A DNA stretch of 64,000 nucleotides from Sphingopyxis macrogoltabida (GTDB lineage Bacteria > Pseudomonadota > Alphaproteobacteria > Sphingomonadales > Sphingomonadaceae): assembly GCF_001307295.1 (NCBI RefSeq), contig NZ_CP012700.1:2731001-2795000 (forward strand). Direction: 5' to 3'. Of this stretch, positions 15,873 through 63,803 are shown piece after piece (positions within the stretch are counted from its first letter, which is position 1; every line of letters begins with the position of its first letter). A program made the translations under genes and the position numbers. The notes under the pieces are model-generated. The model was not told the DNA's origin. It worked only from the letters and a program-made list of their open reading frames with translations, and did not search any database.

Positions 15873-15884
15873 GGGAGGACATCG

Positions 15885-22886: not shown

Positions 22887-23274
22887 TCAGGTCCACACTT
22901 CGCATTCGCTCGCTCTCAAACTGGTAGCCACCGCAGCCCTGGTTGCGGCGCTGCTCTGGGGCGCCTGGGTGACGCGCGAGATCGCCAGCTCTCCTGAGCA
23001 GCGCATCGTCACCGTCCGCCTTGCCGAAACGATCGGAACTTTTGTCGAAGAGGCTGCGCGCGCCGATGCCGATCCGGCGGCCGTCCAGGCCGCAAGCCTT
23101 GCCTACCTCCAGGCTGCGGAAAACGCGGTTGGCGAGATGGGGAACGATGGCCGCGTGGTGCTGATGGCCGAAGCGGTACTTGCCGGGGCCGCCGAGGACG
23201 CCACTCCCGAACTCGAACGCCGCATCGCCGAGAAGCTCGAACGCAAGCCACTCGAAGGTGGAGAGCAGCCATGA
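22879..23274 (+). CDS. trbI: TrbI-type F conjugation protein
   Basis: A 131-residue bitopic membrane protein. One helix (about residues 12-28) is followed by a periplasmic domain starting IVTVRLAETIGTFVEEAARA, the TrbI_Ftype signature. In F this protein affects pilus retraction. The start at 22879 keeps the MSDQ N-terminus and lies 8 nt within the preceding gene; the stop overlaps the S26 peptidase start. Confidence 0.78.
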   Translation: MSDQVHTSHSLALKLVATAALVAALLWGAWVTREIASSPEQRIVTVRLAETIGTFVEEAARADADPAAVQAASLAYLQAAENAVGEMGNDGRVVLMAEAVLAGAAEDATPELERRIAEKLERKPLEGGEQP

Positions 23275-27889: not shown

Positions 27890-28698
27890 CCCATCTCTAT
27901 CGCATGGCGGCGCTGGCCCTGGGCATGACTGCTCTTCCCGTGACCTCAGCCTACAGCCAGGATCGGCAAGCCACCTCGTCAACCAACTCGGCCGATACGC
28001 TCTACTGCGAAGAGCGCAAGCTCGGCTATTGGTTCTACTGCGTGAAGCCCGTTCCCCAAGAAGAGCCGCAACAACCCGAAGCCGAACCGGTCCCGGCCAG
28101 CCAAGAACTCGACGCGATCACGTCCGAGCTGCGCGAGTTGAAGGCGCGAGCGATCCTCTATCCGACCGAGGCGAATGTCGCGGCCTATATTCGTTTCCAG
28201 CGCGCGCAGCTCGACCGCGCCTCTCTCTTCTCCGACGTCTGGCAACGCGCGATCTGGCAGGACCCCGAACTCGATTACACGCTCGAGCGGCCCGTCGGAG
28301 CGGTCGCGAAGAAGCAGTGGCAGGATGCCCGCAGCGCCGAACGGGACAGCGTCATGGCGACGCTCTCCGAGCGCTACGGCCTGTTCTATTTTTTCAGCGC
28401 CACCTGCGGCCCATGCGAAGTGATGAGCCCCATCGTCAAGGGAGTCGCCGACCGCTGGCGCATCACTGTGCGCGCCATCTCGACCGACGGCGGGCCTTCG
28501 CGCCATTTCCCGGACTACAAGGTCGAGACCAACCAGCGCGCCAGACTCGGTCTTGAAGGCAAGGCCACTCCGGCGCTTGTGCTGTGGGACAGCGTGACCA
28601 AGCGACCGATCCCGATCGGTTACGGCGTGCTCTCGGCCGACGAGCTCCAGAACCGCATCTACCTCCTCACCTCGAAGGAAGCCGGACATGATTTCTAG
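27886..28698 (+). CDS. traF: F-type conjugal transfer protein TraF (thioredoxin-like)
   Basis: Periplasmic protein with a thioredoxin-like C-terminal domain (270 aa). The N-terminal signal peptide is followed by CEERKLGYWFYC, a Pro/Glu-rich linker, a helical segment and the thioredoxin domain with FFSATCGPCEVM. Here the CxxC active site is retained, unlike F-plasmid TraF. The cis-Pro segment is KATPALVLWD. Retention of CGPC suggests real redox activity alongside the operon's DsbC. It overlaps traH by 11 nt. Confidence 0.88.
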   Translation: MTHLYRMAALALGMTALPVTSAYSQDRQATSSTNSADTLYCEERKLGYWFYCVKPVPQEEPQQPEAEPVPASQELDAITSELRELKARAILYPTEANVAAYIRFQRAQLDRASLFSDVWQRAIWQDPELDYTLERPVGAVAKKQWQDARSAERDSVMATLSERYGLFYFFSATCGPCEVMSPIVKGVADRWRITVRAISTDGGPSRHFPDYKVETNQRARLGLEGKATPALVLWDSVTKRPIPIGYGVLSADELQNRIYLLTSKEAGHDF

Positions 28699-30124
28699 CA
28701 TTCGCAATGCAGCGCTGACCCTCGCCGCTGCCAGCCTGGTCGCATCACCGGTCGCCGCCAACGTCGGCGACAGCATGGACAGGTTCATGGATGATATGGG
28801 CGCGGCGGCCAATGTCACCGGCCCGACCGCCTTCGAGGGCCAATCGGCGGGCTATTACAGCCTCGGCAATGTCTGGACGCGCTTCCCGCAAAAGACGACG
28901 AACATCGCCAATCTCCAGCTGCCCCGCGCCCGCGCGGGTTGTGGCGGTATCGACATCTTCGCGGGCTCCTTCTCCTTCATCAATGCGAGCGAGATGGTCG
29001 CGCTCCTGAAGGCCGTGGCGAACAACGCGGTCGGGTTCGCCTTCAGCTTGGCGATCGATACCGTTTGCCCCGAGTGCAACAAGATCATGCAGGAGTTTTC
29101 GCAGAAGGCGCAGCTCATGAATAATCTCTCGATCAACTCCTGCGAAATGGCGCAGGGTCTGGTCGGCGGCCTGTGGCCCAAGGGCGATCTCGCCGACAAG
29201 GCGATCTGCGAAGCGATCGGCAATTCCGAAGGCATCTTCACCGATTATGCCGCAGCGAAGCATGGCTGCGGCACGCGGGGGCAGCGCGCCTCGACCAATG
29301 AAGGCGCTGGCACTGACTATGCCGACGTCAATCCTGGCGTGCCGCGCAACTACACCTGGCACGTCCTGAAAAAGAGCGCCTTTTTCAATCCCGGCGGCAC
29401 TTTCGACCGCGAGCTTGCCGAATACGCCATGACGCTTATCGGCACGGTGATCTATGTGCCGCCCAAGGACGATGAGCCAGGCAAGTTCGTGCCTTTCGCA
29501 GGCGATGCGTCCTCGACGCTCGTGAGCGCGCTGCTCGACGGGACGCAGGGCCAGACGGTGCGCGTGTTTCGCTGCGACGAACCCGATCTCTGCCTCAATC
29601 CGACATTCGAGCAGATGAGCCTTTCCAATGCCAAGGCAATCCGCCCCCGCGTCGCACTCCTCATCGGCAACATGGTCGATGCAATCCGCACCGACACCGC
29701 AATCGGCAATGCTGAGAAGGAACTGCTGCAGGTGGCCTCGGTCCCCTTGTACAAGATTCTCACGGTGCAGGCCGCCTATGGTCGCGGCATGCCGACCGAC
29801 GACCGCGACACGCTCGCCGAAATCGCCAGCATCGATCTGCTCTATGCGATCCTCGACCGGATTGTGTCGGAAGCCGGGCGCTCGATGGCAAGCTTCATCG
29901 CCGCCGACGAAGCAAAGCTCGCGATATGGCGCGGCCAGGTCACCGAGGTGCGTTCGGGCCTCGTCCAGCGGCAGGCGACCGGACAGGCCAAGGTCTCGGC
30001 GATCATGCAAATCATCGAGAAGACTGCGATGATCGAGAACGCGCTTGCCGCCTCGATGTCACCCTCGATGTCCGCCGCGCTCGACTGGTCGCGCGGGCTC
30101 CAGTCGCGCTCGATCATTCCTTGA
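28688..30124 (+). CDS. traH: Conjugal transfer protein TraH
   Basis: Periplasmic pilus-assembly protein (478 aa; F TraH is about 458). The signal peptide ends SPVAA. Family segments include GQSAGYYSLGNVWTRFPQKT, GGIDIFAGSFSFINASEMV and NNLSINSCEMAQGLVGG, with a helical C-terminal half. It acts with TraF and TraW/TraU in pilus extension. It begins inside the traF stop region. Confidence 0.93.
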   Translation: MISSIRNAALTLAAASLVASPVAANVGDSMDRFMDDMGAAANVTGPTAFEGQSAGYYSLGNVWTRFPQKTTNIANLQLPRARAGCGGIDIFAGSFSFINASEMVALLKAVANNAVGFAFSLAIDTVCPECNKIMQEFSQKAQLMNNLSINSCEMAQGLVGGLWPKGDLADKAICEAIGNSEGIFTDYAAAKHGCGTRGQRASTNEGAGTDYADVNPGVPRNYTWHVLKKSAFFNPGGTFDRELAEYAMTLIGTVIYVPPKDDEPGKFVPFAGDASSTLVSALLDGTQGQTVRVFRCDEPDLCLNPTFEQMSLSNAKAIRPRVALLIGNMVDAIRTDTAIGNAEKELLQVASVPLYKILTVQAAYGRGMPTDDRDTLAEIASIDLLYAILDRIVSEAGRSMASFIAADEAKLAIWRGQVTEVRSGLVQRQATGQAKVSAIMQIIEKTAMIENALAASMSPSMSAALDWSRGLQSRSIIP

Positions 30125-30134
30125 GGCGAGCACC

Positions 30135-32837
30135 ATGGTCGAGATCTTCACCACCGGCGGCGGCGAATACATCGTCAATGTCCTGAACGCGGTCGCCGCA
30201 TGGACAGGTGCAGGCGGATACAAGAGCCTGATCCAGGTTGCCCTTGTCATGGGGTTCGCGCTCGCGGTGATCGTGGTGGCGTTCAACCAGAACTGGCGCG
30301 CATGGCTCAATTGGTTCCTCGGCGCGACGCTGATCTACATGTGCCTGATGGTGCCGCGGATGGATGTGCAGGTCACCGACCGGGTCAATCCGAGCCTCGC
30401 TCCGGCGACCGTTGCCAATGTCCCGCTCGGGCTCGCGCTGATGGCAAGCTTCACCAGCCAGGCGGGGGACTATTTGACGCGTTCGGCCGAGACGGTGTTC
30501 GGGCTTCCCGATGATCTCAACTATTCGAAGAACGGGATGATATACGGCGCGCGGCTGCTCGAAGCGACGCGGTCCCTGCGCATTGCCGATCCCGAATTCG
30601 CCGCCAATTTCGACGAGCATGTCCGCCAATGCGTGTTCTACGACTTGCTGCTCGGCCGCTACTCGATGAAGGAATTGTCGGAGAGCAACGATATCTGGGC
30701 GACCATCGCGCCCGGGAGCGCGGCGCGTGCGCAGAAACTCCTCACCCGGGAGGCCGATGACAGTGTCACGGCCTCCATCGTTACTTGCCGCGAAGCCTAC
30801 ACCGCGCTCTCGAACCAGTGGGCAGGGATGATCGACGACATGACGCTCGTTGCCGGCCGCCAGCTCTATCCCAAGCAGACCGAAGCGCTTGCCAAGGCCA
30901 AGCTCATCGCCGACCTGCCGGTGGCTTACCAGTATCTCACCGGCATCTCGAAGGACGCGAGCAGCATCTTTCGCCAGGTCCTGACTATCAACGCGATGAA
31001 CCAGGCGATGCATGGGTTCGCCGGAGCAAGCGGCGCCTCGAGCGTCGATGTGTTCGCGCAGACCCGTGCTGATATCCAGACCGAGCGGACCTATTCCTCG
31101 ATCGCGCACAATGCGATGAAATGGGTGCCGATCCTCAACGTGGTGTTGACGGTCGTCTTTTACGCGCTCTTTCCGGTGCTTTTCCCGCTGTTCCTGATGC
31201 CCACGACCGGACCGATCGCGCTGAGAGGTTATGTCACTGGGTTCTTCTACCTCGCCGCCTGGGGACCGCTCTTCGTCATCCTCCACATGATCCTGATGCT
31301 CAAAGGCGCCGGCGATGTTGCGGCAGCCGGCGGCGCGAGCGGCCTTACGCTCGCGACCTTCTCGGGGATGACCGACGTCAACAACGATATCGGTATTCTC
31401 GCTGGCTATCTCGTTGCCTCGATCCCGTTTCTTGCAGGAGGCGTTGCGCGCGGCGCGATGGCGATCTCGGGCCAGGCCACGAGCTATCTCAATCCGAGCC
31501 AGAATGCCGCCGAAGAAGCCGCACGCGAGGCAAGCACGGGCAATGTGTCGCTCGGCAACACCAATCTCGACAATTCAAGCGTGTTCTCGCGGCAGTTCGC
31601 TCAAGGCAGTCTCGCACCAAACATCGCTTATGGCGCGGCGCAGACAAGAGGAATTGGCGAGAGCGGCACTCAGACAACCGGCTTTCCGCAGGCGGAATTC
31701 GCGACCGTGCCGACCTCCAGCTATCCCTTCACCCCGACGCTCGGCCAAGATTTCTCAAGCAGGCTTTCAACCATGGCGAGCGAAAGCCGCAGCCAGAGCG
31801 AGACCTTCTCCAACCTTGCTCAGCAATCGACCAGTTCGGCGGTCACACGGTTCAGCGAACTGCGCGATGCCTACACCCGTTCTCGCTCGAACGAGACGGT
31901 CAGCGGAACGTCGACCAATGACAGCATTGGAAGAACATTCAGTGAGCTCGACAACGCGTCCAACACCTTGCAGCAGCAGTTTGGCCTGTCTCGCCGGGCA
32001 TCGGACGACATCTCGGTCTCATGGTTCCTGAACGGTGATGCGGGAGTGGGGGCGAAAGCAGAAGGAGACGTTTTCAGTGGTTCTGGCGGAATTAAGGGCG
32101 GGAGAAATCAGAGCTGGACCGACAGCGATATAGGGATCGCCTCGGAAGATCGCTCGCGTATCGAGAGTGCGCTCAGCCAAATTTCCGAAAGCTATAACTG
32201 GTCAAGTTCCAGAGAGGGCTTCTTCCGCGAGACCAGCTCAAGCTCAGAAGCGCTTGTTTCGAGTAGTGCAGCGGGTGTCACAACTTCGCTTACAGAAGCG
32301 AATAGCTACACAGTCGAGGCACGCCGCGCGGAAGAATTAGCCAATCGGCTTGAGAGCCAGGCTAGCTGGTATGAAAGCGCCAATGCTGCGGGTACGCTTA
32401 ACCTCAGCCAAGCCTATCGCGAATGGGGCATGGCGGAGATAGAAGCCAACCGCGATTACTATGGTCGAGCCCGCTTCGATGACATCGACTTCCAGATGAG
32501 CGCGCAAGGACAGCAGCTGCAAGCACGATTTGTCGAGAGCTACGCTGAAGGCCTCAATGATGAGATCGCGAGCGAACTTGAGTTGCCTGATGCAGCGCCT
32601 GTGACTCGCCCTAATGTAGGAAGCGCGAGCGGCGTGGGCGGCTCTGTTCGTCTTGGCGGAACACCAAGCTCTCTCGGGGATCCGTCAGATGGAAGGCAAG
32701 AGATCGCAGGCGATGTTAGTCGGAAGCAAAACGAAGGCTCTCGAAGCATCGAGCGGAGACGTGGAAGTCTTGATCGGACCACACGGGATGCACGAGGAGC
32801 ATCCGCTGAGGCAGCCGATGATGTGAAGAAATGGTAA
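30135..32837 (+). CDS. traG: Conjugal transfer protein TraG
   Basis: Large inner-membrane protein for pilus assembly and mating-pair stabilisation (900 aa). The start at 30135 gives the TraG N-terminus (MVEIFTTGGGEYIVNVLNAV). Several membrane helices lie at about residues 35-80 and 330-470. The C-terminal half is periplasmic, Ser/Thr/Ala-rich and helical, and is the most divergent part, as in F, where this end is linked to entry exclusion recognition. It is the last gene of the tra operon and ends 1 bp before a convergent small gene. Confidence 0.92.
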   Translation: MVEIFTTGGGEYIVNVLNAVAAWTGAGGYKSLIQVALVMGFALAVIVVAFNQNWRAWLNWFLGATLIYMCLMVPRMDVQVTDRVNPSLAPATVANVPLGLALMASFTSQAGDYLTRSAETVFGLPDDLNYSKNGMIYGARLLEATRSLRIADPEFAANFDEHVRQCVFYDLLLGRYSMKELSESNDIWATIAPGSAARAQKLLTREADDSVTASIVTCREAYTALSNQWAGMIDDMTLVAGRQLYPKQTEALAKAKLIADLPVAYQYLTGISKDASSIFRQVLTINAMNQAMHGFAGASGASSVDVFAQTRADIQTERTYSSIAHNAMKWVPILNVVLTVVFYALFPVLFPLFLMPTTGPIALRGYVTGFFYLAAWGPLFVILHMILMLKGAGDVAAAGGASGLTLATFSGMTDVNNDIGILAGYLVASIPFLAGGVARGAMAISGQATSYLNPSQNAAEEAAREASTGNVSLGNTNLDNSSVFSRQFAQGSLAPNIAYGAAQTRGIGESGTQTTGFPQAEFATVPTSSYPFTPTLGQDFSSRLSTMASESRSQSETFSNLAQQSTSSAVTRFSELRDAYTRSRSNETVSGTSTNDSIGRTFSELDNASNTLQQQFGLSRRASDDISVSWFLNGDAGVGAKAEGDVFSGSGGIKGGRNQSWTDSDIGIASEDRSRIESALSQISESYNWSSSREGFFRETSSSSEALVSSSAAGVTTSLTEANSYTVEARRAEELANRLESQASWYESANAAGTLNLSQAYREWGMAEIEANRDYYGRARFDDIDFQMSAQGQQLQARFVESYAEGLNDEIASELELPDAAPVTRPNVGSASGVGGSVRLGGTPSSLGDPSDGRQEIAGDVSRKQNEGSRSIERRRGSLDRTTRDARGASAEAADDVKKW

Positions 32838-47043: not shown

Positions 47044-47497
47044 AGTTTAGGAGGGTTTTGGTTCTCGTCGTAGTGACGAAGGAACGAACATGAGAACCAA
47101 AAGTCGAGGTCGAAGCGCCCTGCCGAGTAGGTTGTAGCTTGAGCAGTGGAATCGCTAGGATGTATTCGCTTTGCGCCAACGACCGGGTGCCATTCCACCG
47201 ACCCGTTTAAAAGCTCGACAAAAACTACCTGCTTCAGAGTATCCAAGCGTGTAAGCGATCTGCTCTAATGTCATGGTTGATGATAATAAGAGCTGGCAAG
47301 CACGTTCAAAAATAACTTCGGACTGGATTTGTCGAAAATTTGTTTCTTCTGTATGCAAACGACGCCTCAGAGTACTCATTGAGCACCCTAAAGCTCGACA
47401 AATTTCTGGCTCAGTGGACAGCTTTTCATTTGACATCTGCAGAAGCATTTGTTAGCGTCCGCGCTCGTGGTGTAATTTCCGGTGTAGGCGATGGTGT

Positions 47498-47529
47498 ATT
47501 CCGGGGTGGGGCATGCCCCACCCCGGAAT
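47498..47529. repeat. 32-bp perfect palindrome inside the IS256-family element
   Basis: ATTCCGGGGTGGGGCA followed by its exact reverse complement, centred between the element's left end and the transposase start. Transcribed from outside, it would form a very stable G/C-rich hairpin. It recurs in copy 2 at 57063-57094. A role in blocking impinging transcription is inferred from analogous hairpins in other IS elements. Confidence 0.8.
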
Positions 47530-47607
47530 GCGGCGTCGCTGGTGGCCACCGGGTTCATCGTTATGGTGGAGTTTGCACACTTCAACCGTGACGAAGAGGA
47601 GTTCCCG

Positions 47608-48822
47608 ATGACCGAGGACAGATTACTGATCGAAGAGCTGGCTGCAAAGGGCGGCCAACCGGATTTTTTGCGCACCATCGCCGAGAACGTGCTGCAGCTG
47701 ATCATGGAGGCCGACGTTGATGGCCTGATCGGCGCGGGTCGCCACGAACGCAGCAGCGAGCGCGCGACCTGGCGCAACGGCTATCGCGACCGTTCGCTGG
47801 ATACCCGGGTAGGCACGCTGAACCTGAAAATCCCCAAGCTGCGTGCTGGGTCCTATTTTCCGGGCTTCCTTGAGCCCCGCAAGATGGTCGAGAAAGCGCT
47901 GGTTGCGGTGATCCAGGAAGCGTGGATCGGCGGGGTCAGCACCCGGCGGGTCGATGAACTCGTCCAGGCCATGGGCATGACCGGCATCTCCAAGTCCACC
48001 GTCTCCAAGCTTTGCAAGGACATTGACGAGCGCGTCCATGCCTTTCTGAAACGCCCGCTCACCGGCGAATGGCCGTATCTCTGGCTCGATGCCACCTATC
48101 TCAAGGTACGCGAAGGCGGGCGGATCATCAGCGTTGCCGCAATAATCGCCATGGCCGTCAACACCGAGGGCCGGCGCGAGATCGTCGGCCTGCATATCGG
48201 CCCCTCGGAAGCGGAGGTCTTCTGGTCCGACTTCCTGAAGGACCTTGTTCGGCGCGGTCTTACCGGCGTGAAGCTGGTCATCTCCGATGCTCACGAGGGC
48301 CTCAAGGGCGCGATCACCCGCGTCATGGGCGCCACCTGGCAGCGCTGCCGGGTGCACTTCATGCGCAATGCCCTGTCCTATGTGCCCAAGGGCCAGAACA
48401 CTGTCGTCGCCGCCGCGATCCGCCAGGTCTTCCTGCAGCCCGATCAGAAAAGCGCAACGCAGGTCTGGCGACAGGTCGCCGACCAGTTGCGCACCCGTTG
48501 GCCCAAGCTCGGCGCCTGCATGGACGAGGCCGAAACCGACGTGCTCGCCTACACCGGCTTCCCCACCCAGCACCGCACGAAGTTACACTCAACCAATCCG
48601 CTCGAGCGGCTCAACAAGGAGGTCAAGCGCCGCGCCGACGTCGTCGGAATCTTCCCGAACGAAGACAGCATCATCCGCCTCGTCGGGGCTGTGCTGATGG
48701 AGCAGAACGACGAGTGGCAGCTCCAGCACCGATACATGCAGATCGAAGGCATGGCCGAACTCAACCAACCCATGATCGAGGAGGAAAATCAGCCCCTACA
48801 CATCACCGCCAAAGCCGCCTGA
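47608..48822 (+). CDS. IS256-family transposase, copy 1
   Basis: Mutator-type DDE transposase (404 aa from the ATG at 47608, which has a GAGGAG site). Catalytic residues: Asp in LWLDATYLKVREGG, Asp in LVISDAHEGLKGAI and Glu in STNPLERLNKEVKRR, with the family's WQRCRVHFMRNAL motif between. Intact and identical in sequence to the copy at 55770-56984, so it is likely active. Confidence 0.95.
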   Translation: MTEDRLLIEELAAKGGQPDFLRTIAENVLQLIMEADVDGLIGAGRHERSSERATWRNGYRDRSLDTRVGTLNLKIPKLRAGSYFPGFLEPRKMVEKALVAVIQEAWIGGVSTRRVDELVQAMGMTGISKSTVSKLCKDIDERVHAFLKRPLTGEWPYLWLDATYLKVREGGRIISVAAIIAMAVNTEGRREIVGLHIGPSEAEVFWSDFLKDLVRRGLTGVKLVISDAHEGLKGAITRVMGATWQRCRVHFMRNALSYVPKGQNTVVAAAIRQVFLQPDQKSATQVWRQVADQLRTRWPKLGACMDEAETDVLAYTGFPTQHRTKLHSTNPLERLNKEVKRRADVVGIFPNEDSIIRLVGAVLMEQNDEWQLQHRYMQIEGMAELNQPMIEEENQPLHITAKAA

Positions 48823-49706
48823 CGATGGCCCACGGCCACAGCCGAAATTACACCACCTTGACGGACGCGACCAAGCATTTCCTTGACTCTGTTTTTTGTA
48901 CTTGAGTGGCGCCTTTCAAGGGTGTTGCTCAGCTTGTCCTCTAATCTCATGCGTGACCAACGGTCATCGAATTTCAATTGCATACGAAACAAGCTGCGAT
49001 TGAATGAAATTGAATAGTTTTTCTGCCCAAATAGCGTTTCTGTTCCAAACGCCTTTCCAACCTCATCCATATTGTCCGGTCTATCGTTCTTGAATGAAGT
49101 TTGGCATGGATATACTTCGGAATTGGTTAACTCTTGGACCCAGGTAACCAGGGCAGCCATGCCTCTTGTAGCTAGAAAGTGTTGACTGAATGGTGGCAGC
49201 TTGTGCCCAAGAATCACGAATTTGATGGTGTCAGGATCTCGGACAACGGAAACTTCGTTGATCCACAAAGATATCTTGTAGAATTTGGCGCCAATCGTTA
49301 GCGCTTGTTCCAGCGTGCGGCTAGCCATCATGGCGAAACCTAGTGTTCCATAACAGGTCAGGTGTTGGCGCATTCCCAAAATCACGCCGTTGGCAGGATC
49401 ATCGTCTATCTCCAGCAAGTTTTGAATTGCTCGGAGTTCTTGCCAGACCTGAATTTCGCAATATGGGTCTTCAATATCATCCAGATCTAATTCCGTTCCT
49501 TTCAGGATTTCGAGGGCTGGAATGTCGTGTTCGCGCGCGAAATCAACAAGGAGTCTCAACGATGTAACTTGTCGAATATCTGAAAATTCTTTTTTGTATG
49601 AGATGTGGGTCATTTTCGCGTCACCAAAGTTGAGACCACTTGTCTCCGATTGGAGCGGCAATGACAAGACTTCACCTGACTTCGGATCGATGAACTGGGC
49701 CATAGG

Positions 49707-53682: not shown

Positions 53683-55719
53683 AAAATCGGCCGTTACTCG
53701 CTAATCTAACTCAGCTTCACCAGCAGCAGCTACTGCGTTCGGTGTGCCCTCCCATTTCCCATATTCCCCCACGTGACCAGTTATTTCGCCGGTTCGTTCT
53801 GAAGGGCTTTTCCAACGTCTTTCCAACGGATCTCCGCGCCCTCGCGGCGAAGGATCCCTCATTCTGGGTAGCACTAAGTCTCAGCCTCGACTGACGATCG
53901 TGCAATCGCAATGGCCTCTTCAAATCTTACTCTTGTCGGCTGGCGAAGCCGCGCCAGTTTGAATGCTTTGGAGTAGTGCGCGAGTATGTCTTCGGTTGAT
54001 TTCTTTGATCGGATTCCGGGCAGCGCCAAGCTGGCCAACTCGATCAATGGGATATCCCGATGCGATCTCCAGTCGGATCGTGAGGGCCTCAAGGGTACGA
54101 TCATATGTGGGCTCGAATGCTTGGGAAAAAGGACAAGGCGATTTCCGTCATACGCCCGACGGCACTCAGCTGGGATCGCCGAAACAACTCTCTCCTGAAT
54201 AATCCGTCCCGCCTTTTGCTTCCCATGCGCACGGGCGACCCGTTCGACGACAAGGTCGAGATAGACGGGCCCCTCACGTTCGATGACCTCCTCGACGATT
54301 GTTTCGAGACGTCGCTGATATGCATCTTCATAAAGCAGATCGCCATCACCTTCAGGCACTGAAAGTTCGGAAAATTGGTACTCTTGGCCCACCTCGTGAG
54401 GAGGCAAACGATAAACCGTTTCATGCGGTTGCCGTGATTGATCACTCGAAATGTGCGTCTCATCTTTACCGCATGAGGATGTAAGCTGGTGCAGCCCCCT
54501 GCCTCGACTTTCGACCAAACCGCGCGAATGCAAAGAGTTGCTCCGGGATGGGGAGAGCGCGTTGTTTACAAGCTCCTCCCACCTCTCCTCATGCGGCCTG
54601 AAAGCCGCAGGTGCGCGGTCTGCTGACGACAGCGGGAGGTGGTCAGGCAACGCTTTCTTCAACTGGGAATTACTCCAGACTTGTCCATCTGACATCAGCT
54701 GCAAGATCTGCTCTTGAACCTGAGCTTCAGTAACCCGAGCGGAGTCCTGCTCCTCATCGTCAGAAGGCACAACGGTAGCAAGTTCTTCGCTCGAATGGTC
54801 TGCTTGGCCCTCACAATTCTCAACGGGTTCAGTAGGTAGATCGACTTCGTCTTGCGCGTCATCCTCAGTCGAGTCAGAGGAACGCCAAGCTCTTAGTTCT
54901 ACATGTCGACTGGTCCACTCATCTGAACCGCCAACTGGCTGGATACCACGCTCGGATAGGAACCCGACCAGTTCCTCCATCACCTGTCTTTGATCCCTGA
55001 CGAAACGAGATGCGAAGCACCTCCAAACTGTCCAACCAGCCCTTTCCAAGATGCGCTGCCGGTTCATGTCGGAGGCCCAACGATCAGGTCCGTGATATCG
55101 GTCGCCATCGCATTCGATTGCGACGCGGCGGTCATTCTCACCTTCGACCACGAGGTCGATCCTAAAATCGCCTACTTTGACTTGGGTGTCGACTCTATAG
55201 CCTCGCTCAACCAACAGATCGTACATCTCGCGCTCAAAATCGGACTCGCACTTTTCCCGCCGGTCCTTGGCCTCTTGACCATCAGACGGGAAGGGCATCC
55301 GGAAATGGTCCAGCAGCGCGCGGCGAAGCTGATCGGCATGTCCAAGGGCTTCAACGTCTACTGAGCGAACCAAATACGTTCGATCACATGCTCGCGAAAG
55401 GGCGACGTTGAAGCGTTGCTCAAATCGGACTCCCGACAGAGCGCTACCACCCGCTTGAGCAACCAACGATATGAACATGATGTCTCGCTCGTCACCCTGA
55501 AAAGCTGTGGGATCGCCCACGCGCAGGTGGTGCTGTTCGATCACCTCTGGTCCGAGTTTTTGCTCGATCAGGCCATAAATGTGAGCTGCCTGCTTTTGAC
55601 CCAATAGGGTTGTTACGCCGATTGTCCGCGTTGCCATCTTTGGGTCGGATGCGATTCTCTCAATCTCTTCGACGATATATGCCGCTTCCGGAGGATTAAT
55701 GTCTCCCTGTCGATATCCG

Positions 55720-57141
55720 GGTCGCGTCCGTCAAGGTGGTGTAATTTCGGCTGTGGCCGTGGGCCATCGTCAGGCGGCTTTGGCGGTGATGTGTAGGGGC
55801 TGATTTTCCTCCTCGATCATGGGTTGGTTGAGTTCGGCCATGCCTTCGATCTGCATGTATCGGTGCTGGAGCTGCCACTCGTCGTTCTGCTCCATCAGCA
55901 CAGCCCCGACGAGGCGGATGATGCTGTCTTCGTTCGGGAAGATTCCGACGACGTCGGCGCGGCGCTTGACCTCCTTGTTGAGCCGCTCGAGCGGATTGGT
56001 TGAGTGTAACTTCGTGCGGTGCTGGGTGGGGAAGCCGGTGTAGGCGAGCACGTCGGTTTCGGCCTCGTCCATGCAGGCGCCGAGCTTGGGCCAACGGGTG
56101 CGCAACTGGTCGGCGACCTGTCGCCAGACCTGCGTTGCGCTTTTCTGATCGGGCTGCAGGAAGACCTGGCGGATCGCGGCGGCGACGACAGTGTTCTGGC
56201 CCTTGGGCACATAGGACAGGGCATTGCGCATGAAGTGCACCCGGCAGCGCTGCCAGGTGGCGCCCATGACGCGGGTGATCGCGCCCTTGAGGCCCTCGTG
56301 AGCATCGGAGATGACCAGCTTCACGCCGGTAAGACCGCGCCGAACAAGGTCCTTCAGGAAGTCGGACCAGAAGACCTCCGCTTCCGAGGGGCCGATATGC
56401 AGGCCGACGATCTCGCGCCGGCCCTCGGTGTTGACGGCCATGGCGATTATTGCGGCAACGCTGATGATCCGCCCGCCTTCGCGTACCTTGAGATAGGTGG
56501 CATCGAGCCAGAGATACGGCCATTCGCCGGTGAGCGGGCGTTTCAGAAAGGCATGGACGCGCTCGTCAATGTCCTTGCAAAGCTTGGAGACGGTGGACTT
56601 GGAGATGCCGGTCATGCCCATGGCCTGGACGAGTTCATCGACCCGCCGGGTGCTGACCCCGCCGATCCACGCTTCCTGGATCACCGCAACCAGCGCTTTC
56701 TCGACCATCTTGCGGGGCTCAAGGAAGCCCGGAAAATAGGACCCAGCACGCAGCTTGGGGATTTTCAGGTTCAGCGTGCCTACCCGGGTATCCAGCGAAC
56801 GGTCGCGATAGCCGTTGCGCCAGGTCGCGCGCTCGCTGCTGCGTTCGTGGCGACCCGCGCCGATCAGGCCATCAACGTCGGCCTCCATGATCAGCTGCAG
56901 CACGTTCTCGGCGATGGTGCGCAAAAAATCCGGTTGGCCGCCCTTTGCAGCCAGCTCTTCGATCAGTAATCTGTCCTCGGTCATCGGGAACTCCTCTTCG
57001 TCACGGTTGAAGTGTGCAAACTCCACCATAACGATGAACCCGGTGGCCACCAGCGACGCCGCATTCCGGGGTGGGGCATGCCCCACCCCGGAATACACCA
57101 TCGCCTACACCGGAAATTACACCACGAGCGCGGACGCTAAC
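55720..57141 (-). mobile_element. IS256-family element, copy 2 (1,422 bp)
   Basis: The same element as at 47451-48872 in opposite orientation, inserted in the helicase-nuclease gene. It is flanked by the 8-bp direct repeat GATATCCG (55712-55719 and 57142-57149). The identical length and predicted proteins indicate very recent transposition between the two sites or from a common donor. Confidence 0.94.
55770..56984 (-). CDS. IS256-family transposase, copy 2
   Basis: A 404-residue Mutator-type transposase, the same residue for residue as copy 1 as far as I can compare. Asp/Asp/Glu lie in LWLDATYLK, LVISDAHEG and NPLERLNKE. It starts at the ATG at 56984 after GAGGAG. The 32-bp palindrome lies upstream at 57063-57094. 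Confidence 0.94.
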   Translation of the reverse strand: MTEDRLLIEELAAKGGQPDFLRTIAENVLQLIMEADVDGLIGAGRHERSSERATWRNGYRDRSLDTRVGTLNLKIPKLRAGSYFPGFLEPRKMVEKALVAVIQEAWIGGVSTRRVDELVQAMGMTGISKSTVSKLCKDIDERVHAFLKRPLTGEWPYLWLDATYLKVREGGRIISVAAIIAMAVNTEGRREIVGLHIGPSEAEVFWSDFLKDLVRRGLTGVKLVISDAHEGLKGAITRVMGATWQRCRVHFMRNALSYVPKGQNTVVAAAIRQVFLQPDQKSATQVWRQVADQLRTRWPKLGACMDEAETDVLAYTGFPTQHRTKLHSTNPLERLNKEVKRRADVVGIFPNEDSIIRLVGAVLMEQNDEWQLQHRYMQIEGMAELNQPMIEEENQPLHITAKAA

Positions 57142-60100
57142 GATATCCGTCTTCAATTCGAACGTCGATCAAGGGAGGATCAAGCCGTTCCGAAGCAGTC
57201 GGTAGCCGCAGAGGATTCAGCCTGTGATTGTAGAACTGCGCCTTGGAAAATTCGATGATGGGCGCGACACAACGGAAATGTTCGGTAAGCATGATCGCCC
57301 CACCGGCGAAGACCACCTTGCCAAGATCGTACAGCGATTGTTCCTCGCGTAGCGAAGCCCGATAATCGGGGACTTGCCCAGAAAGGTGTCGTACCGCGAG
57401 TTCATCTGCACGCGTCTGGTCGCGTCCGACAAGGTCCGGACTGACCTGCTTATCATCGCCAACGATGAGGATTGTCTTGGCCCGTAGTAGGGCGGGTAAT
57501 GCCGCTACCGTCGATTGCGATGCTTCGTCAACGATCACGAGATCGAAGAGTCCCAAATCTGCTGGAAGGGACTCTGAGACCCGGTAATGCGGCATAATCC
57601 AGCATGGCAAAGCGCCCTTGGCGCGATCGGATGCCTCACGCGCCTGGCGCCTGTATCGGCCAGCACGTTTCCCAGTACCTCGTCCAATTCTTCGAACTGC
57701 ATCTGCATAGGCGGCAAGTGCCGCCTTGACCCCATCACTAGCCTTCTTGCTGAGCTCCAACCAGGTTCGCAGTTCAATCGAGCGTTCGTATGCTCGTTTG
57801 AGGAGAACCTCCTTCTCGCTGCGATCAGTGCCGAGTTCCCTAAGGCGGTGATGCTTGTCGTTCGTATCCAGCCACCCCTCTAGGCGACGAAGACGCCAAC
57901 GGTTTTCCCAATCACCGGGTAGAAGTTCGTCCTCAACACCATTGACCGGATTGGACCTCAAGCGCCGAGCCCATTTTGGCGCACCTGACATCTCAATGAG
58001 GTCTGTCACCTCCGCAATCTTCGCGAAAGCGTCGTGTTTCCCTTTTACTTCTCTCAGACGCGTAATGAACGAATTCCACGCTTCTGCCAGTGCATCAATT
58101 GATACTTCCGGGCTGCCCAAACGCGTAGCCGCCAGGGCACGAAGCTCCGCGCTGATTTCGTATTCACAGGGCTCTAGCTCGGAGAGGAGAGAGGTCCGCA
58201 AACCTTCAGCATCAGCCAATCGATATCGCAGAAGATGAGCATCGACGGCTTCAAGCAGACCGCGAATTGCCTGCTGATCACCATCCCGCAACGCAGGGGA
58301 CGAAACAAAAGTAGCATCGACCGCAGCATGGATCTCTCGACGACTTGCGATCAATGTATTAGCAGCGTCAATATGATCGAACTGGCGTCTTGCGAGTTGC
58401 GCCACGCCCAACTCTTGTCCTTCCAGACGATCACCGATCCCGCCAGCCACCACGTTGTTCCACGCTGTCTGAAATCGCCGAATTGAAGCCCGTGCTGTAA
58501 CAAATCGTTGAACGTCGCTCCATTCGTCGGCAGTTGAAGCTGGTTCGCCCAATACAGTGACCTCACCCAGCTGAGCCTTGAGTTTGGAAGCGAATAACCC
58601 GCCAACGAGCCCGACTGCCGGTTTACCTTCGGCCTCTTTCTCAATCGCAACAAGAAACTTCGGATCGCTAAGCGCTTCTTCCGGCACGAAAACCGGTCTG
58701 GTCAGGAAGTATTGATACTCGGCTCCAAGCCTTAAAGCCTCTTCGCGCAAGCTCTCCAACGCGGTTAGACGGTCGTCCGGTCCGGTTTGCCCAAGACAAA
58801 GAAGCAGCTCATCAGTCCATGCAAAGGGTGCCCCTGATACCCGTTGCTCCTCTGCAGATAGTGACTTCAGTTTTGCCGTCAGGTCTCGCAGGCGCGAAAC
58901 AGTGTCATCCCGGTCCTCTCGCAAAGCCGGAAGTTCGCCCTTGCTTATCCTCTCCCTTATCTGCTCGGCTTTAGACAGATCCTTGTGGGCATTGAGGAGC
59001 GTTTCGACTGTGGGAAGGCGCTCAAGGTCCGGAAGGCACGCATTCAGATAGGCGAGGTCGTCACCAACTGCCTTCCGAGCCGTCCTGAGTTCGGCAATGT
59101 CAGCATCGGAAAATGCTGGATCGCAGGTTGATGAAACCTCCAGATCATCAGGCATCCAAGCTGTTAGTTCCGGCGAGGCTGCGACCATTCTAGCGGCGCG
59201 CATTGGCTCGTAAGTGTCGCCATCCAGCGTGATTGGCGAAATTGCCGCGCGTCCGATCTTGTCGACTTCTGTATCGATTAGCGCCAATTGCCGGTGCAGC
59301 CTGTCAATCTGCTCGTCCAGATCATCAATCTCGTCCTGCAACTCATGCCGCCGCAGCCGTTGCAGTTTTTCGCCGATGATATCGACGGATTCCTGAAACT
59401 GCTTAAGGCCGTCGCGATCGCTTTCAAGGAGGCTCACTGCAAGAGGACGCACCGCTTCTGGTAGCTTGTCGCGAAGAACCCTCAGTGCGGGCGCTTTCTG
59501 AGATGTCACGAGCACCCGCTTGCCAAGGGCGAGGTAGTGACTGATTATATTTGCGATCGTGTGCGTCTTGCCGGTACCCGGCGGCCCCTGAACAACTACT
59601 CCCGGGCGCACTTCCAGTCGCTGCACCACTTCGACCTGCTCACGGTTGAACGGCAATGGAAAGAACAGATCCTTCCCCTCCCCGCTAGAAGTGGTGACGC
59701 CCGGAATGCTGGAGATGCCGCGGAACTCGGGATACTCTTCTTCGCTCACCGCATTAGCAGGCTCAACAAGCAAGGAGGCCACTGCCTTCGGCAGTTCTGT
59801 TGTCTCTTCTCCATCTTCGAGAAGCGCGCGGAACTGACGCAAATCTTCCATCAATTGAGTGGCACGACGCTCTCGCTGAAAGAATGCAAACGCATCGCCG
59901 ATCCTGAACTGCGTTTCAATCGAAGGGATAATCCCGGGCTGCGCTGGATCTTGGTCGGGTAAGTACACAGCATCAGGATCAAGCAAAGCGGCGGCCTGGC
60001 GTAGCGGTGGCGCGAACGTCTCCGGGGCAAATGGAGACAGGCTTTCTTCCTCAAGTTCACCAAGGAATTTCTCAGTCGCGGAGCGCCATTGGTCCAGCAC

Positions 60101-60908
60101 GCCCAGCCCCATCTTATCCAGCGCGTCCAATTCGAGACCGGGGTCCGCTTCCATACGCGGTCGCACCTCAATCGCGTGGGTCAACTCGTTCAGACTGATT
60201 TCCTGCGAGACCGTAAGCAGCGGATACCGCAACCGCTTCCCGTCTCGAAACAGCGTGGCAAAACCGATGCCGCAGGTCAGCTCAAGCGGGATATCGCTGA
60301 CACCTTCGAGCTGTTGGCGCAGCATGAACAACGCATTGTAGAGCGCAATTGTCTCACGGCGCGGGGTTTCGGTCTCGACCCAATTCGACCAGGCATTCTT
60401 AAGCCAGTACTCGAACAAAAGCTCGACCATCTCACGCTCGGCAAAATGTTCCAAGGAAACATGCTCGGGTGCATCTTCGGCGGGGATCAGGCCAGCCTCT
60501 ACAAGGACAGCCCCTGAGATTTCGGACTTAAGTCGCGGCTCGCTTTTGGGATCGTCGCGATAGGTCAGCCAGACGGATAGCTCTACGTCCTCTGGTGCTG
60601 GCGGTGCCTTCCTCGGCAGCCGGTCGACACGCAACCATATCGGATCGTCATCGCGCCCGACATCGAGTGCGACACCAGGAAATCCTTGAAGCTCCGCCCC
60701 GGTTTTGCGGAAGGCCTTGTGATCCTGATAATCCAGAACCGTTTTCAACTTATCGCGCTCGGTGGCCTCGACGTAGTCGATCAGGTTAAGAAGGCGTTCT
60801 TGCTCTGCTGTCAATCGAGGCGACTCTTCAGTACTTGGCAGCAAGGGGTCCATGTCGAAATTCGGATCATCCTCCTCATCTATCGGAAAATCACGAATAT
60901 TGTTTAAA

Positions 60909-62579
60909 CCTGCATTCCCCAAGTGGCGTGGCGTTTGAGGTGAAGATCGCCTGTATCCGAGCGCTAGACAAGGATTTTCTGCCGCAAGCGGCACCTGCGG
61001 TCGCGCAGACTGCTGGATCTGGACGGATCAGACCGCGAAGCCGCTGTTTCCTTGCCCAGGGGCGGCGTTTTTCAGCGCAGCGGACAGATCTGTCCAGCCG
61101 CTTTCGTTCAGTTTGAGCGTGGATCGCGATCATGCGCATAGCGGTGGCGCTCGCAATCGGCGGATAGCGGCGAGGATGGCGCGTACCATCGTGCCGGTGA
61201 CAGCGACCTCGGCCAGCTGGAAGGTGATGGTGCGGGCGTGACGGACCACACGTGCCCCGATCTTGATCAGCTTCAGTTGCAGGCTGGTCAACGACCAGTC
61301 GGCCATGGCCTCGGGCAGCTCGATGCAGCGCAAGAAGGTGGCCAGGTTGTACGCCAGGGCGTGCAGTTGCAGCCGCACCTCATTGTCGCGGAACTTCCGG
61401 CACGACAGCCGCGTCCAGCGAAAGGCGTATTTGCCCTCTTTGATGTGCTGCTCGGCGGTGCCGCGCTGGTTGTAGAACCGCACCACCCAGTCCGGCTCCA
61501 TCGGCAGGTTGGTGACGATGAAGCCGACACGCGGGAACAGTTCGCCCGGATGCCATTCGATCTTGGCGATCACCCGGCGTTCCTTGTCCCAGGACGCCGC
61601 CTGATACTCGAATTCCTCGAAGAACCGCTTGACCTTGGTCAGTGACGGCCGCCCGACAGGGCGCGTTAGCCGATGCGCGATCTTGTCCTTGAGGACCGCG
61701 TTTGCGGGCAGCCGGATGGCGTAGAAGAACCGCGCTTCTTCCAATCGCTCATAGATCGCCGGGATCGCGTAGGCAGCATCGGCCCGGAAGAACCTGCCAC
61801 CAAGGTCGCGCTCCGCGTAGCGCGCAATGACGGGGTCGAGAACATCACGCCAGCCATCGGCGCTGTGGACGTTGCCATGGCGCAGGGCGCAGCGTTCCAG
61901 CATCCCGAACTGGTTGAACAGAAAGTTGGGGTGATAGCAGCTACAGTCGAAATGGCCATTCCAGGCGGACCCTTCCTGGTCGCCATGGGTCGGGCTGACC
62001 GAGCTGTCCATGTCCAGAACGATGTACTTCAGCCCGTTACGGTCATGGAACCGGTCGATCCATTGCCCGTTCAGGTCGGCCAGCGCGGCACGGTTCCCGG
62101 CCAGAGCCAGCGTCTCGGTCTCGAACCGTCCCATCTGCGATGCCGAGGCCGCTTGTGCATCGACCGCTCTGCCGCCGACAACTTGGCGCATGACCGGATC
62201 GCAGGCGAGACGGTTGGCGTCGTTGACATCCTCGTATCCGGCCAGCCGCCCAAAGACTGATTGCCGGAACAGGCCGTCGAGCCGATGGACCGTGTTCTTG
62301 CCAGAGCGAGTATCGCGCAGCGCCGCTGACGCCAAATCGGACAACCCGAGCGCGTCATCAAGCTCGCGCATCACCAGAAGGCCGCCGTCGGAACTGAGCT
62401 GCGTGCCGCGAAATTCCAGCCGCACGCGAGGGTCGAAATCCACCCGATCTGCCCGTTGCAAGCCCGCACCCTCTGGGTGATCCATGAAACGCGCCCCTCG
62501 CAGCCTTCAACACCATGTTTTATATAGGAAATATAATGGTCAGGACAGCGAAATCAGCGCCTTACTTGGGAAATGTGGG
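60909..62579 (-). mobile_element. IS1380-family element (1,671 bp)
   Basis: Inverted ends CCTGCATTCCCCAAGT (left) and, on the other strand, CCCACATTTCCCAAGT (right), flanked by the 5-bp direct repeat TTAAA (60904-60908 and 62580-62584). The length of about 1.67 kb and the 4-5 bp duplication fit the IS1380 family. It is inserted near the 5' end of the helicase-nuclease gene. Its left end fortuitously supplies an in-frame ATG at 60994 for the downstream part of that gene. Confidence 0.92.
61130..62485 (-). CDS. IS1380-family transposase
   Basis: A 451-residue DDE transposase. Family signatures: LSSDGGLLVMRELDDALGL near the N-terminus, first Asp in VLDMDSSVSPTHGDQEG, second Asp in RADAAYAIPAIYERL, and Glu in YNQRGTAEQHIKEGKYAFRW (YREK-like region). 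No internal stops; it appears functional. Confidence 0.93.
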   Translation of the reverse strand: MDHPEGAGLQRADRVDFDPRVRLEFRGTQLSSDGGLLVMRELDDALGLSDLASAALRDTRSGKNTVHRLDGLFRQSVFGRLAGYEDVNDANRLACDPVMRQVVGGRAVDAQAASASQMGRFETETLALAGNRAALADLNGQWIDRFHDRNGLKYIVLDMDSSVSPTHGDQEGSAWNGHFDCSCYHPNFLFNQFGMLERCALRHGNVHSADGWRDVLDPVIARYAERDLGGRFFRADAAYAIPAIYERLEEARFFYAIRLPANAVLKDKIAHRLTRPVGRPSLTKVKRFFEEFEYQAASWDKERRVIAKIEWHPGELFPRVGFIVTNLPMEPDWVVRFYNQRGTAEQHIKEGKYAFRWTRLSCRKFRDNEVRLQLHALAYNLATFLRCIELPEAMADWSLTSLQLKLIKIGARVVRHARTITFQLAEVAVTGTMVRAILAAIRRLRAPPLCA

Positions 62580-62780
62580 TTAAATGCCCGTCGATTCTTT
62601 CGACTATCGATCGCGCCCATGGATGATGAAACTTTTCAAACTCACTTCGAACCGAATTAAGTCTCTCTGCGTCGTCGTAGTGAAACTCAACAAGGTCTTC
62701 GATCGCTTGAAGATTGTCCTCAAGGGCCATCGCGCCCGATAGGCCCAAAGCTTTCATTGCTGTCAGCAGGTCTATCCGGC

Positions 62781-63803
62781 TCACGCCGATACCCTTTCCT
62801 GATTAAGGCGGAAAAGGCGCGCGAGGATTTCGTCGTCAGTTAGGGTTCCAGCGCGATAGTCGTCGCCCCAGCCGTAGGCTTCGGCAACGGCTTCATCGAG
62901 CGCGCGATGGGCATGGTCGAGCCAAGCGGGGCGGGTGTTGTAGAGATTGGTGAGAGTGCGTTTTTTCAGTTCCTTCGCGGCAGCCTCGTCCTTGGGCAGG
63001 ATGCGGTCGGGATAGCCTTCGACCACTTCGGGCACTCGCTCGATAAGCTCAGGCGGGTTGAGCCAGTTCTCGCGCAACTCGTTGAGCCGCGCCGCCGCTG
63101 CCGCAATAGCCTGCGCGCGTGGATCATCGGCGTAGTCGGCAGTGGGGATGTCGGGGGTCAGACCTTCGGGAAAGGGGAAGGTCAGGTACACATAAGATGC
63201 GTTGTAGCGCCTCTGATTGCCTGCCCCAATTCGATTGCCAAAGTACGTACACCAATTCTCGTGAAACCGACTTTGCAACACTCCAAAACCTTCCAATCCA
63301 ACGCCAGGAAAAGCGTAGAGGCTTTTGTCAGGCACCGTCCCTGCTGGAAGAAATCTAAAGACACGATGCTCGGTTGTTTCGGCTGTGGCAAGATAATCAC
63401 CAGCATTCACAAGTCGATTGCGGAGTGCAGGCCTAGCCCGATGCGGCTCCCACCACGAAGAGTTTTGGCTGTCAGTATCTGTCCGATAGTCAACATAGTT
63501 AACAAGCTCACCGTCGCGATGTGGATCATATTTCGCAGCGCGAAGGTGTTCGAACGGAAGCTCGAAAGCGCTCGCTTCGGCTTCACCAAGTCCGCTGGGA
63601 AAATCGATAAGAAAGTTCTCAGACGGGCGGCCAACAATATCATCTGTTGCGACATAAGCCGAAAGAATGGCCGAGTTGGGCACTCCATTCGGATTGGTCG
63701 GTGCACGTAGCCATTCTACCGCCCTGTCTCTGTCAACTGTTAGCGGCCCGCTCTGCTGAACACCGATGAAGACAGAGCTCGCATTCTCATTCAATCGCGC
63801 GAC
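62781..63803 (-). pseudogene. C-terminal part of an MmeI-like DNA methyltransferase
   Basis: About 340 codons of the target-recognition and C-terminal regions of a large class I N6-adenine methyltransferase of the MmeI/type IIL-like kind (normally about 900 aa). Recognisable parts are FHENWCTYFGNRIGAGNQRR, SYVYLTFPFPEGLTP and the conserved end TLTNLYNTRPAWLDHAHRAL...EILARLFRLNQER. The catalytic NPPY and SAM-binding regions are missing. The coding frame (VARLNENASSVFIG) abuts the end of an IS6-type element at 63804, which removed or displaced the 5' two thirds. The stop overlaps the helicase start by 4 nt (ATGA), showing that the two formed one operon. Confidence 0.82.

What the first reader, a model, noticed from the sequence alone, without database searches (positions are those of the whole stretch)
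53874..62784. A giant helicase-nuclease gene split by two different IS elements can be rejoined exactly into 1,935 codons
The IS1380-family insertion (60909-62579, TSD TTAAA) and the IS256-family insertion (55720-57141, TSD GATATCCG) both sit in one minus-strand gene. Subtracting each element and one TSD copy from 8,911 bp leaves 5,805 nt, divisible by three, with no stop at either junction (IDGHL|NNIRD and EDGYR|QGDIN). The encoded protein has an SF1 ATPase, a very long helical insertion, a Vsr-like/MTES_1575 nuclease and a DUF3320-like end. That is an architecture related to the DUF4011-helicase-Vsr proteins reported as antiviral (I recall the Hhe system). Two independent, recent hits in one gene suggest that selection favoured its loss in this replicon.
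Basis: partly seen in the sequence, partly recalled or inferred. Interest (0 to 1): 0.85.

Follow-up and report, generated by a model that had tools for sequence, protein, structure and literature searches.

The report
Broken helicase-nuclease gene of phage-defence type
A very large bacterial gene that probably helps fight viruses by travelling along DNA and cutting it has been split into three pieces by two jumping genes, and whole copies in related bacteria show that the pieces were one gene; such a break in a stretch full of jumping genes is ordinary, but the habit of this gene's relatives of sitting next to quite different defence systems is worth a look.

Summary
Pieces 62784-62581, 60904-57143 and 55712-53874 (minus strand) are one gene of 1,935 codons with the stop; the IS1380 duplication is TTTAA, not TTAAA. 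Five relatives have the N piece fused to the middle piece; 59 of 78 run through the second junction without indel, 19 with one or two extra codons. The protein is a UPF1-like SF1 helicase with a long coiled-coil insertion, a Vsr-like nuclease (MTES_1575) and winged-helix domains. It is not Hhe: no DUF4011, scores far below the cut-off. Nearest profiles are NCBIfam ProA (below its cut-off) and PADLOC candidate PDC-S37. Upstream lies the 3' third of an MmeI-like (type IIL) methyltransferase whose catalytic part is gone from the genome; in intact relatives it and a DUF262 gene form an operon with the helicase. "Selection favoured its loss" is not shown: 6 of 18 contig-C1 copies of these two IS lie within 77 kb, and given that, two hits in this gene have P about 0.07. 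Broken copies elsewhere keep the idea alive. Some relatives follow type IIL, type III, McrBC or BREX genes or sit beside ter genes; for 57 of 80 loci I found no such neighbour.

The parts
62581..62784 (-). N piece of the helicase-nuclease gene (68 codons; GTG start overlaps the methyltransferase stop as GTGA)
   Evidence: 62-67% identical to the N-termini of L007, L100, L101, L104, L105
60909..62579 (-). IS1380-family insertion, 1,671 bp
   Evidence: NF033539 E 1.6e-116; 3 near-identical copies in the genome
62580..62584 (-). target-site duplication TTTAA, first copy
60904..60908 (-). target-site duplication TTTAA, second copy
57143..60904 (-). middle piece (1,254 codons): N-terminal region, RecA1 with Walker A and B, coiled-coil insertion
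   Evidence: PF13086 AAA_11 E 9.1e-15
59564..59587 (-). Walker A GPPGTGKT
   Evidence: invariant in the 65-row alignment A3
57740..59356 (-). long coiled-coil insertion between Walker A and Walker B (placed from the L007 model, residues 585-1123)
57518..57532 (-). Walker B VDEAS
55720..57141 (-). IS256-family insertion, 1,422 bp
   Evidence: NF033543 E 4.1e-104; 19 full-length copies in the genome
57142..57149 (-). target-site duplication CGGATATC, first copy
55712..55719 (-). target-site duplication CGGATATC, second copy
53874..55712 (-). C piece (613 codons with stop): end of RecA2, nuclease, winged helices
55368..55700 (-). second half of RecA2 (AAA_12), UPF1/Sen1-like
54963..55238 (-). Vsr-like nuclease domain MTES_1575
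54477..54713 (-). Mrr_N-like winged helix (below Pfam cut-off)
54192..54341 (-). DUF3320
   Evidence: PF11784 E 1.1e-12
62781..63797 (-). 3' remnant of an MmeI-like (type IIL) methyltransferase gene: target recognition and C-terminal parts only
   Evidence: matches residues 639-969 of the 970-aa L005 protein
47451..48872 (+). another identical IS256 copy in the same IS-rich stretch
   Evidence: G000:C1:2778451-2779872

Best explanation
This is the wreck of a horizontally acquired operon of anti-phage restriction type. Its last gene encoded a DNA-translocating helicase-nuclease: a UPF1-like SF1 motor whose RecA1 carries a long coiled-coil arm, followed by a Vsr-like PD-(D/E)xK nuclease and winged-helix domains. 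The most likely action is that the winged helices and N-terminal part engage foreign DNA, the motor pulls it, and the nuclease nicks or cuts it, backing up the system in front of it (here a type IIL MmeI-like enzyme and, in intact relatives, a DUF262 gene with an HNH-like end). In this genome the operon was hit at least three times: the methyltransferase gene was cut off next to an IS6-like element, losing its nuclease and catalytic domains, and the helicase-nuclease gene received an IS1380 and an IS256 copy. Shown: gene structure, insertions, domains, conserved motifs, the operon in relatives, loss of the methyltransferase core. Inferred: defence role, DNA as substrate, cooperation with the partner genes, and the order of events.
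For: Pieces and junctions. Domains. Walker A, DEAS, GDDKQ, the FQGDERD and nuclease motifs are invariant or nearly so in the 65- and 56-row alignments. Operon DUF262 / MmeI-like / helicase-nuclease with TGATG overlap in L005 and L006, same order with interrupted ORFs in L004. The L005 MmeI-like protein keeps D64-x9-E74-x-K76, DPACGSGNF and NPPF (read). Only its residues 639-969 match anywhere in this genome. Defence profiles on intact L005 and L007: ProA E 2.7e-84 and 1.6e-82, PDC-S37 E 7e-72 and 1.5e-74. Former function: pieces without stop or frameshift, dN/dS 0.118 (middle) and 0.12 (C) against L005. Patchy: full-length relatives in 2 of 80 genus genomes, its own included (14 others gave only short helicase-motif matches), and 4 of 396 order genomes, its own included, at E <= 1e-60.
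Against: I saw no tested function for any member of this subfamily. The partner may be incidental: MmeI-like genes near 4 of 80 loci, one at 27% identity, and few PADLOC hits among 50 upstream ORFs. The remnant's own Pfam scores are just under the cut-offs (26.8 and 24.9 against 27). The model of the N-terminal 1,200 residues gave no Foldseek match at E <= 0.001, so the helicase N-terminal region is unexplained.
Confidence: 0.6

Rival explanations
1. The three pieces are separate genes or fragments that only happen to be in frame.
For: The N piece is absent from 79 of 80 loci, and L005 and L006 start after it.
Against: Five relatives have N directly fused to the middle piece; 59 of 78 run through the second junction without indel; both elements have target duplications.
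Confidence: 0.02
2. Selection actively favoured inactivation of the helicase-nuclease (for example because the methyltransferase was lost first and the nuclease became self-toxic, or because it hindered uptake of useful DNA).
For: Broken copies recur: L100 has an IS1380-family element in the same gene (annotation) that has no blastn match to ours and lies elsewhere in the gene; L102 is 5'-truncated; L004 has an in-frame stop. With the window that is 4 of 11 assessable sphingomonad copies (window, L004-L008, L100-L102, L104, L105; L013 is cut by its contig end and left out; L007, L101 and L104 are near-identical). Of 20 Acinetobacter plasmid records 9 match only in part in one place; two of these (H25, H28) touch the record's end and may be cut only there.
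Against: The hits fall in a 77-kb stretch holding 6 of the 18 copies of these two IS on contig C1 (20,000 random placements, P 1e-4); within it, two or more hits in 5.8 kb have P 0.07 (boundaries chosen after seeing the data). L004 is a metagenome assembly. 76 of 80 loci have no MmeI-like gene and none a type III Mod or PglX match at 1e-12 (other methyltransferases not sought), so loss of a methyltransferase need not be toxic.
Confidence: 0.25
3. The methyltransferase and the helicase-nuclease are independent systems stacked in one island, and the helicase-nuclease acts alone.
For: The L005 MmeI-like protein carries its own D-x9-ExK motif and looks like a complete type IIL enzyme; 76 of 80 loci lack it; PMC3710099 (passages) argues that related giant proteins act without modification genes.
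Against: Start and stop codons overlap (TGATG in L005 and L006, GTGA in the window). The last about 120 codons of the methyltransferase are 77-91% identical in nucleotides to L005 and L006 and run into the helicase gene, while the 210 before are 47-62% (a final one-codon bin left out).
Confidence: 0.4
4. The protein acts on RNA, as its UPF1/Sen1 likeness could suggest and as the CoCoNuT authors propose for CnuH systems.
For: Best solved matches of RecA2 are Sen1, UPF1, IGHMBP2 and spliceosomal Aquarius; PMC11090510 (passages) predicts RNA targets for CoCoNuTs.
Confidence: 0.2

Closest known systems
PADLOC candidate PDC-S37 (profile PDLC05009)
   Same: Best PADLOC profile for middle and C pieces and for intact relatives; stretches 298-430 and 733-1533 of 1,550 align.
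   Different: Window type is longer (1,934 against 1,550), has the N extension and a methyltransferase in front; whether PDC-S37 was ever tested is not known to me.
Anti-phage protein ProA (NCBIfam NF058533)
   Same: Best NCBIfam profile; same order of helicase halves and nuclease; E 2.7e-84 on L005, best stretch 635-1788 of 1,903.
   Different: 284 bits against a cut-off of 1,500. I found no paper on ProA in the library.
Hhe (DUF4011-helicase-Vsr)
   Same: SF1 helicase and Vsr-like nuclease align.
   Different: No DUF4011; 138-155 bits against a cut-off of 2,000.
MTES_1575-type giant proteins (HEPN-transglutaminase-SF1 helicase-Vsr-two wHTH; PMC3710099, passages)
   Same: Same nuclease family (PF18741) and DUF3320/wHTH tail.
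   Different: No HEPN or transglutaminase hit; a methyltransferase is in the operon here, whereas the paper says modification genes are lacking there.
CoCoNuT CnuH helicases, type III-B (PMC11090510, passages, section 16)
   Same: UPF1-like SF1 helicase, helical insertion after Walker A, Vsr-like nuclease fused to it.
   Different: No McrB or McrC match in the flanks of L004-L006 (canonical queries only; CnuA not looked for); the McrBC-linked relative L008 has an NTAD, that is NxxD, McrB, not NxD.
MmeI / type IIL restriction-modification enzymes
   Same: Upstream partner in L004-L006; remnant in the window.
   Different: MmeI itself needs no helicase-nuclease (recalled).

Membership tests
Hhe | DUF4011 domain | tested here: not met
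   No DUF4011 at E <= 0.01 in the three pieces or in intact L005 and L007
Hhe | NCBIfam NF042953 curated cut-off 2,000 bits | tested here: not met
   76.6 and 56.7 bits on pieces; 154.7 and 137.7 on intact L007 and L005
ProA (NF058533) | curated cut-off 1,500 bits | tested here: not met
   113.4 and 162.7 bits on pieces; 277.8 and 283.7 on intact L007 and L005
PDC-S37 | PADLOC profile PDLC05009 | tested here: inconclusive
   E 1.3e-35 and 8.3e-34 on pieces, 1.5e-74 and 7e-72 on intact L007 and L005; the tool gives no PADLOC threshold
MTES_1575 nuclease family | PF18741 above gathering score | tested here: met
   110.1 bits against 38.2
HEPN-transglutaminase-helicase-Vsr giants (PMC3710099) | N-terminal HEPN and transglutaminase domains | tested here: inconclusive
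   No such Pfam hit at E <= 0.01 in pieces, L005 or L007, but the N-terminal region has no Pfam match at all, so a divergent domain is not excluded
CoCoNuT type III-B | UPF1-like helicase with post-Walker-A helical insertion and fused Vsr-like nuclease | tested here: met
CoCoNuT type III-B | NxD motif in the associated McrB (CnuB) | tested here: not met
   L008, the one McrBC-linked relative, reads NTAD
CoCoNuT type III-B | CnuB, CnuC and CnuA in the operon | tested here: inconclusive
   tblastn of L008's McrB and McrC matched only L008 among 80 loci; CnuA and divergent forms not sought
Type IIL (MmeI-like), for the upstream remnant | MmeI target recognition and C-terminal domains | tested here: inconclusive
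   26.8 and 24.9 bits, cut-offs 27; PADLOC REase_MTase_IIG E 1.9e-70
Type IIL (MmeI-like), for the upstream remnant | nuclease and methyltransferase catalytic domains | tested here: not met
   Only residues 639-969 of the L005 protein match in the genome
Any anti-phage system | protection against phage in an experiment | not testable with these tools
   needs bench work

The most novel reading that the evidence does not exclude
The family is a plug-in effector: one helicase-nuclease that evolution attaches to chemically unrelated self/non-self systems. Within one well-supported clade of nine tree rows the gene in front is a type IIL MmeI enzyme (window, L005, L006), a type III pair or its restriction subunit (L007, L101, L104, L105) or McrBC (L008); further out it follows BrxL in BREX-1 operons (L103, L109, L110) and sits beside terD genes in two separate clades (Sphingomonas and Pseudomonas types). 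The N-terminal extension of about 98 residues, present in some and absent in near-identical copies, would be an exchangeable adaptor.
Probability: 0.25. Interest if true: 0.7.

Novelty: new member of a known kind. Interest (0 to 1): 0.42.

Why it matters
It turns a guess from raw sequence into a placed gene: one broken member of a helicase-Vsr nuclease family near ProA and PDC-S37, with intact operons named in other genomes that can be tested. If the partner exchange holds, the family would be a shared cutting engine used by restriction, BREX and ter systems, which would help explain why giant UPF1-like helicase-nucleases recur in defence islands. The recurrent breakage makes the cost of such genes testable.

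Tried and rejected
Literature. Five searches for ProA, DUF3320, Hhe/DUF4011 and MTES_1575 as defence proteins: the listings show no paper that I recognise as being about this subfamily; PMC3710099, the one paper with DUF3320 and 'defense', treats the related giants. Two searches for a ter link (the second listed 20 of 29): of these I read only passages of PMC3710099 and PMC11090510, so I cannot say that the ter link is unpublished; the 2012 Ter paper that I recall is not held. A term search of PMC9122589 gave 'helicase' only in a reference and no 'downstream of brxl', 'aaa domain' or 'p3abaye'.

A separate small gene carrying the N piece: none among the small ORFs tested beside helicase starts. 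The N extension matched in 1 of 396 order genomes, its own, and in 1 of the 120 listed of 213 related proteins (P0001, E 9e-27; P0074 at E 0.008 is taken as chance).

A second copy of the gene or the missing part of the methyltransferase in this genome: no further match at E <= 1e-3. A DUF262 relative at 55% identity is on contigs C5 and C6.

Fold of the first 1,200 residues: no Foldseek match at E <= 0.001; the VIA-align rows reflect the coiled coil, so no family is named from them.

Two hits in one gene as proof of selection: dropped. That count used, whose first look scored only 40 candidates; pattern searches confirm 19 IS256 and 3 close IS1380 copies.
Full report
What was checked first. 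The window is bases 2,731,001-2,795,000 of a 4.76-Mb contig. On the minus strand the three pieces are 62784-62581 (68 codons), 60904-57143 (1,254) and 55712-53874 (613 with the stop), none with an internal stop; they add up to 1,935 codons. Transposase models match clearly. I translated and searched the pieces apart and joined nothing.

One gene. A scan of GTDB species genomes gave 95 relatives of the middle piece, of which the best 80 were kept as loci. Hits of the middle and C pieces begin in one ORF in 75 of 80. Of the 78 where both sides of the second junction can be placed, 59 have no indel there and 19 have one or two extra codons. L005 and L006, 95% and 91% identical over the middle piece, read EDGYRQGDINPPEAAY straight through. 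The N piece is in only one of the 80 loci, L007 (Sphingobium ummariense), contiguous with the middle piece in an ORF of 1,937 aa; among 13 plasmid records examined it is in four, again contiguous (L100, L101, L104, L105). At the same time the N piece and the next 25 or so residues are an optional extension, missing from the two closest relatives.

The operon and its other wounds. Directly upstream, 62781-63797 is the 3' part of an MmeI-like methyltransferase gene, matching residues 639-969 of the 970-aa L005 protein; no other part matches in the genome. Its upstream end abuts a transposase that I read as IS6-like by eye (no model run), into which an identical IS256 copy has jumped with its own duplication CGCCATCG. 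I saw no duplication flanking the IS6-like element, which fits a deletion next to it. In L005 and L006 the order is HipA, DUF262 (HNH-like C-terminus by eye), MmeI-like enzyme, helicase-nuclease; L004 has the same order with interrupted ORFs. The last two genes overlap (TGATG; GTGA in the window). The L005 enzyme keeps D64-x9-E74-x-K76, DPACGSGNF and NPPF (read; their meaning is recalled). Against L005 the remnant is 47-61% identical in nucleotides over its first 210 codons, then 77-91% over the next 120, while the helicase pieces are 93-94% identical; so the specificity region differs in front of a stable helicase-nuclease.

Was it functional, and was its loss selected? Against L005, dN/dS is 0.118 (middle) and 0.12 (C); L005 against L006 gives 0.071. 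With no other lesion in the pieces, inactivation looks recent, as do the elements: 17 of 19 full-length IS256 copies score identically and 2 of 3 close IS1380 copies do, six more being 85% identical; an internal pattern of each finds the same 19 and 3. On contig C1, 6 of the 18 IS256 and close IS1380 copies lie within 77 kb around this gene (20,000 random placements, P 1e-4 for any such cluster), and given six hits in that stretch, two or more in 5.8 kb have P 0.07. I left out four IS256 copies on other contigs and the six 85% copies; the boundaries were chosen after seeing the data. Local IS density therefore explains most of it. For selection speaks that other copies are broken: an annotated IS1380-family element at another place in the gene of Rhizorhabdus wittichii DC-6, without blastn match to ours; a 5'-truncated copy in Sphingobium fuliginis KK22; an in-frame stop in L004, a metagenome assembly. 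Of 40 plasmid records, 21 cover at least 80% of the L005 protein in one place; of the rest, nine (H32-H40) are distant, one is KK22, and nine are Acinetobacter, two of which touch the record's end. Of those nine I read H23 and H30, which list no CDS over the match in a gene table known to be incomplete.

What it sits next to. Type III modification and restriction genes precede it in L100, L104 and L105, and the restriction subunit in L101 and L007; McrBC in L008; BREX-1 genes ending in brxL in L103, L109 and L110, and brxL upstream of interrupted copies in L111 and L112. In the two Variovorax records with annotation (L106, L107) no such system is named next to it. terD lies within the flanks in 17 of 80 loci, divergent in the sphingomonads and co-directional in Pseudomonas, while TerD is found in 7 of 196 order genomes; one of these, G205, is also one of the four with a helicase relative and has both on one contig, 0.2 kb apart at the nearest. 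In a tree of 82 rows (quick method, several long branches; 15 of the 17 ter loci long enough to enter) the ter label needs two changes and well-supported branches force two; the clade of the window, L005-L008, L013 and three plasmid copies (nine rows, support 100) shows three partner kinds. Against generality: tblastn for 13 context proteins touched 23 of 80 loci, so 57 show none, though 18 loci hold under 3 kb upstream; PADLOC on 50 upstream ORFs (L004 and L006 not in that set) found one type IIG, one type III, PDC-S05 profiles and two amino-acid-transporter matches at E 1e-10.

Comparison with known systems. Hhe requires DUF4011 and 2,000 bits: neither is met. ProA is the best NCBIfam profile but requires 1,500 bits: not met. 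PDC-S37 is the best PADLOC profile, threshold unknown. The MTES_1575 giants of PMC3710099 (passages) share nuclease and tail but have HEPN and transglutaminase domains and are said to lack modification genes. CoCoNuT CnuH type III-B (PMC11090510, passages, section 16) has the same helicase-insertion-Vsr plan but comes with NxD McrB; L008's McrB is NxxD. I therefore file the gene as a broken member of the UPF1-like helicase-Vsr nuclease kind, near ProA and PDC-S37, and not as Hhe.

Verdict. Observation confirmed with a small correction. Interpretation partly supported. The gene itself is an ordinary casualty in an IS-rich zone; the part with some reach is the family's choice of partners, which remains correlational and covers a minority of the loci examined.

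Noticed in passing
L002, about 10812-13055 (window numbering about 63811-66054, beyond the window end): By eye: IS6-like transposase split by an identical IS256 copy with duplication CGCCATCG; it cuts off the methyltransferase and borders a truncated TonB-receptor-like ORF.
   Followed up: partly
window 15851-32837: F-type conjugation genes (TraK, TraC, TraU, TraN, TraH, TraG) in the same region, so the stretch may be an integrated plasmid or ICE.
   Followed up: no
L010, L011, L012, L014-L017, L068, L070, L071 and L037, L039, L044, L048, L072, L076, L078: Relatives of the helicase-nuclease lie beside terD genes, 17 of 80 loci, in two separate clades. Whether this is published I could not tell: of the listings I read passages of two papers only.
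   Followed up: partly
L103, L109, L110 (Acinetobacter plasmids): A relative about 30% identical follows brxL in BREX-1 operons; 9 of 20 Acinetobacter plasmid records match only in part in one place, two of them at the record's end.
   Followed up: partly
L068 and L071, gene start near 10001: In two Sphingomonas genomes the gene's ORF stops matching at the same place (middle-piece residue 976); perhaps a natural two-gene version.
   Followed up: no
G000 contigs C5 and C6: The same-scoring DUF262 relative (55% identical to the L005 one) is found on two small contigs.
   Followed up: no
window 11180-13537: RND-efflux ORF whose match starts at position 268 of the 1,021-position ACR_tran model, possibly 5'-truncated or split.
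   Followed up: no
L106:7786-7986 and L107:7801-7998: In Variovorax plasmids a 65-66 aa ORF, ribbon-helix-helix-like by eye, overlaps the helicase start by four bases.
   Followed up: no
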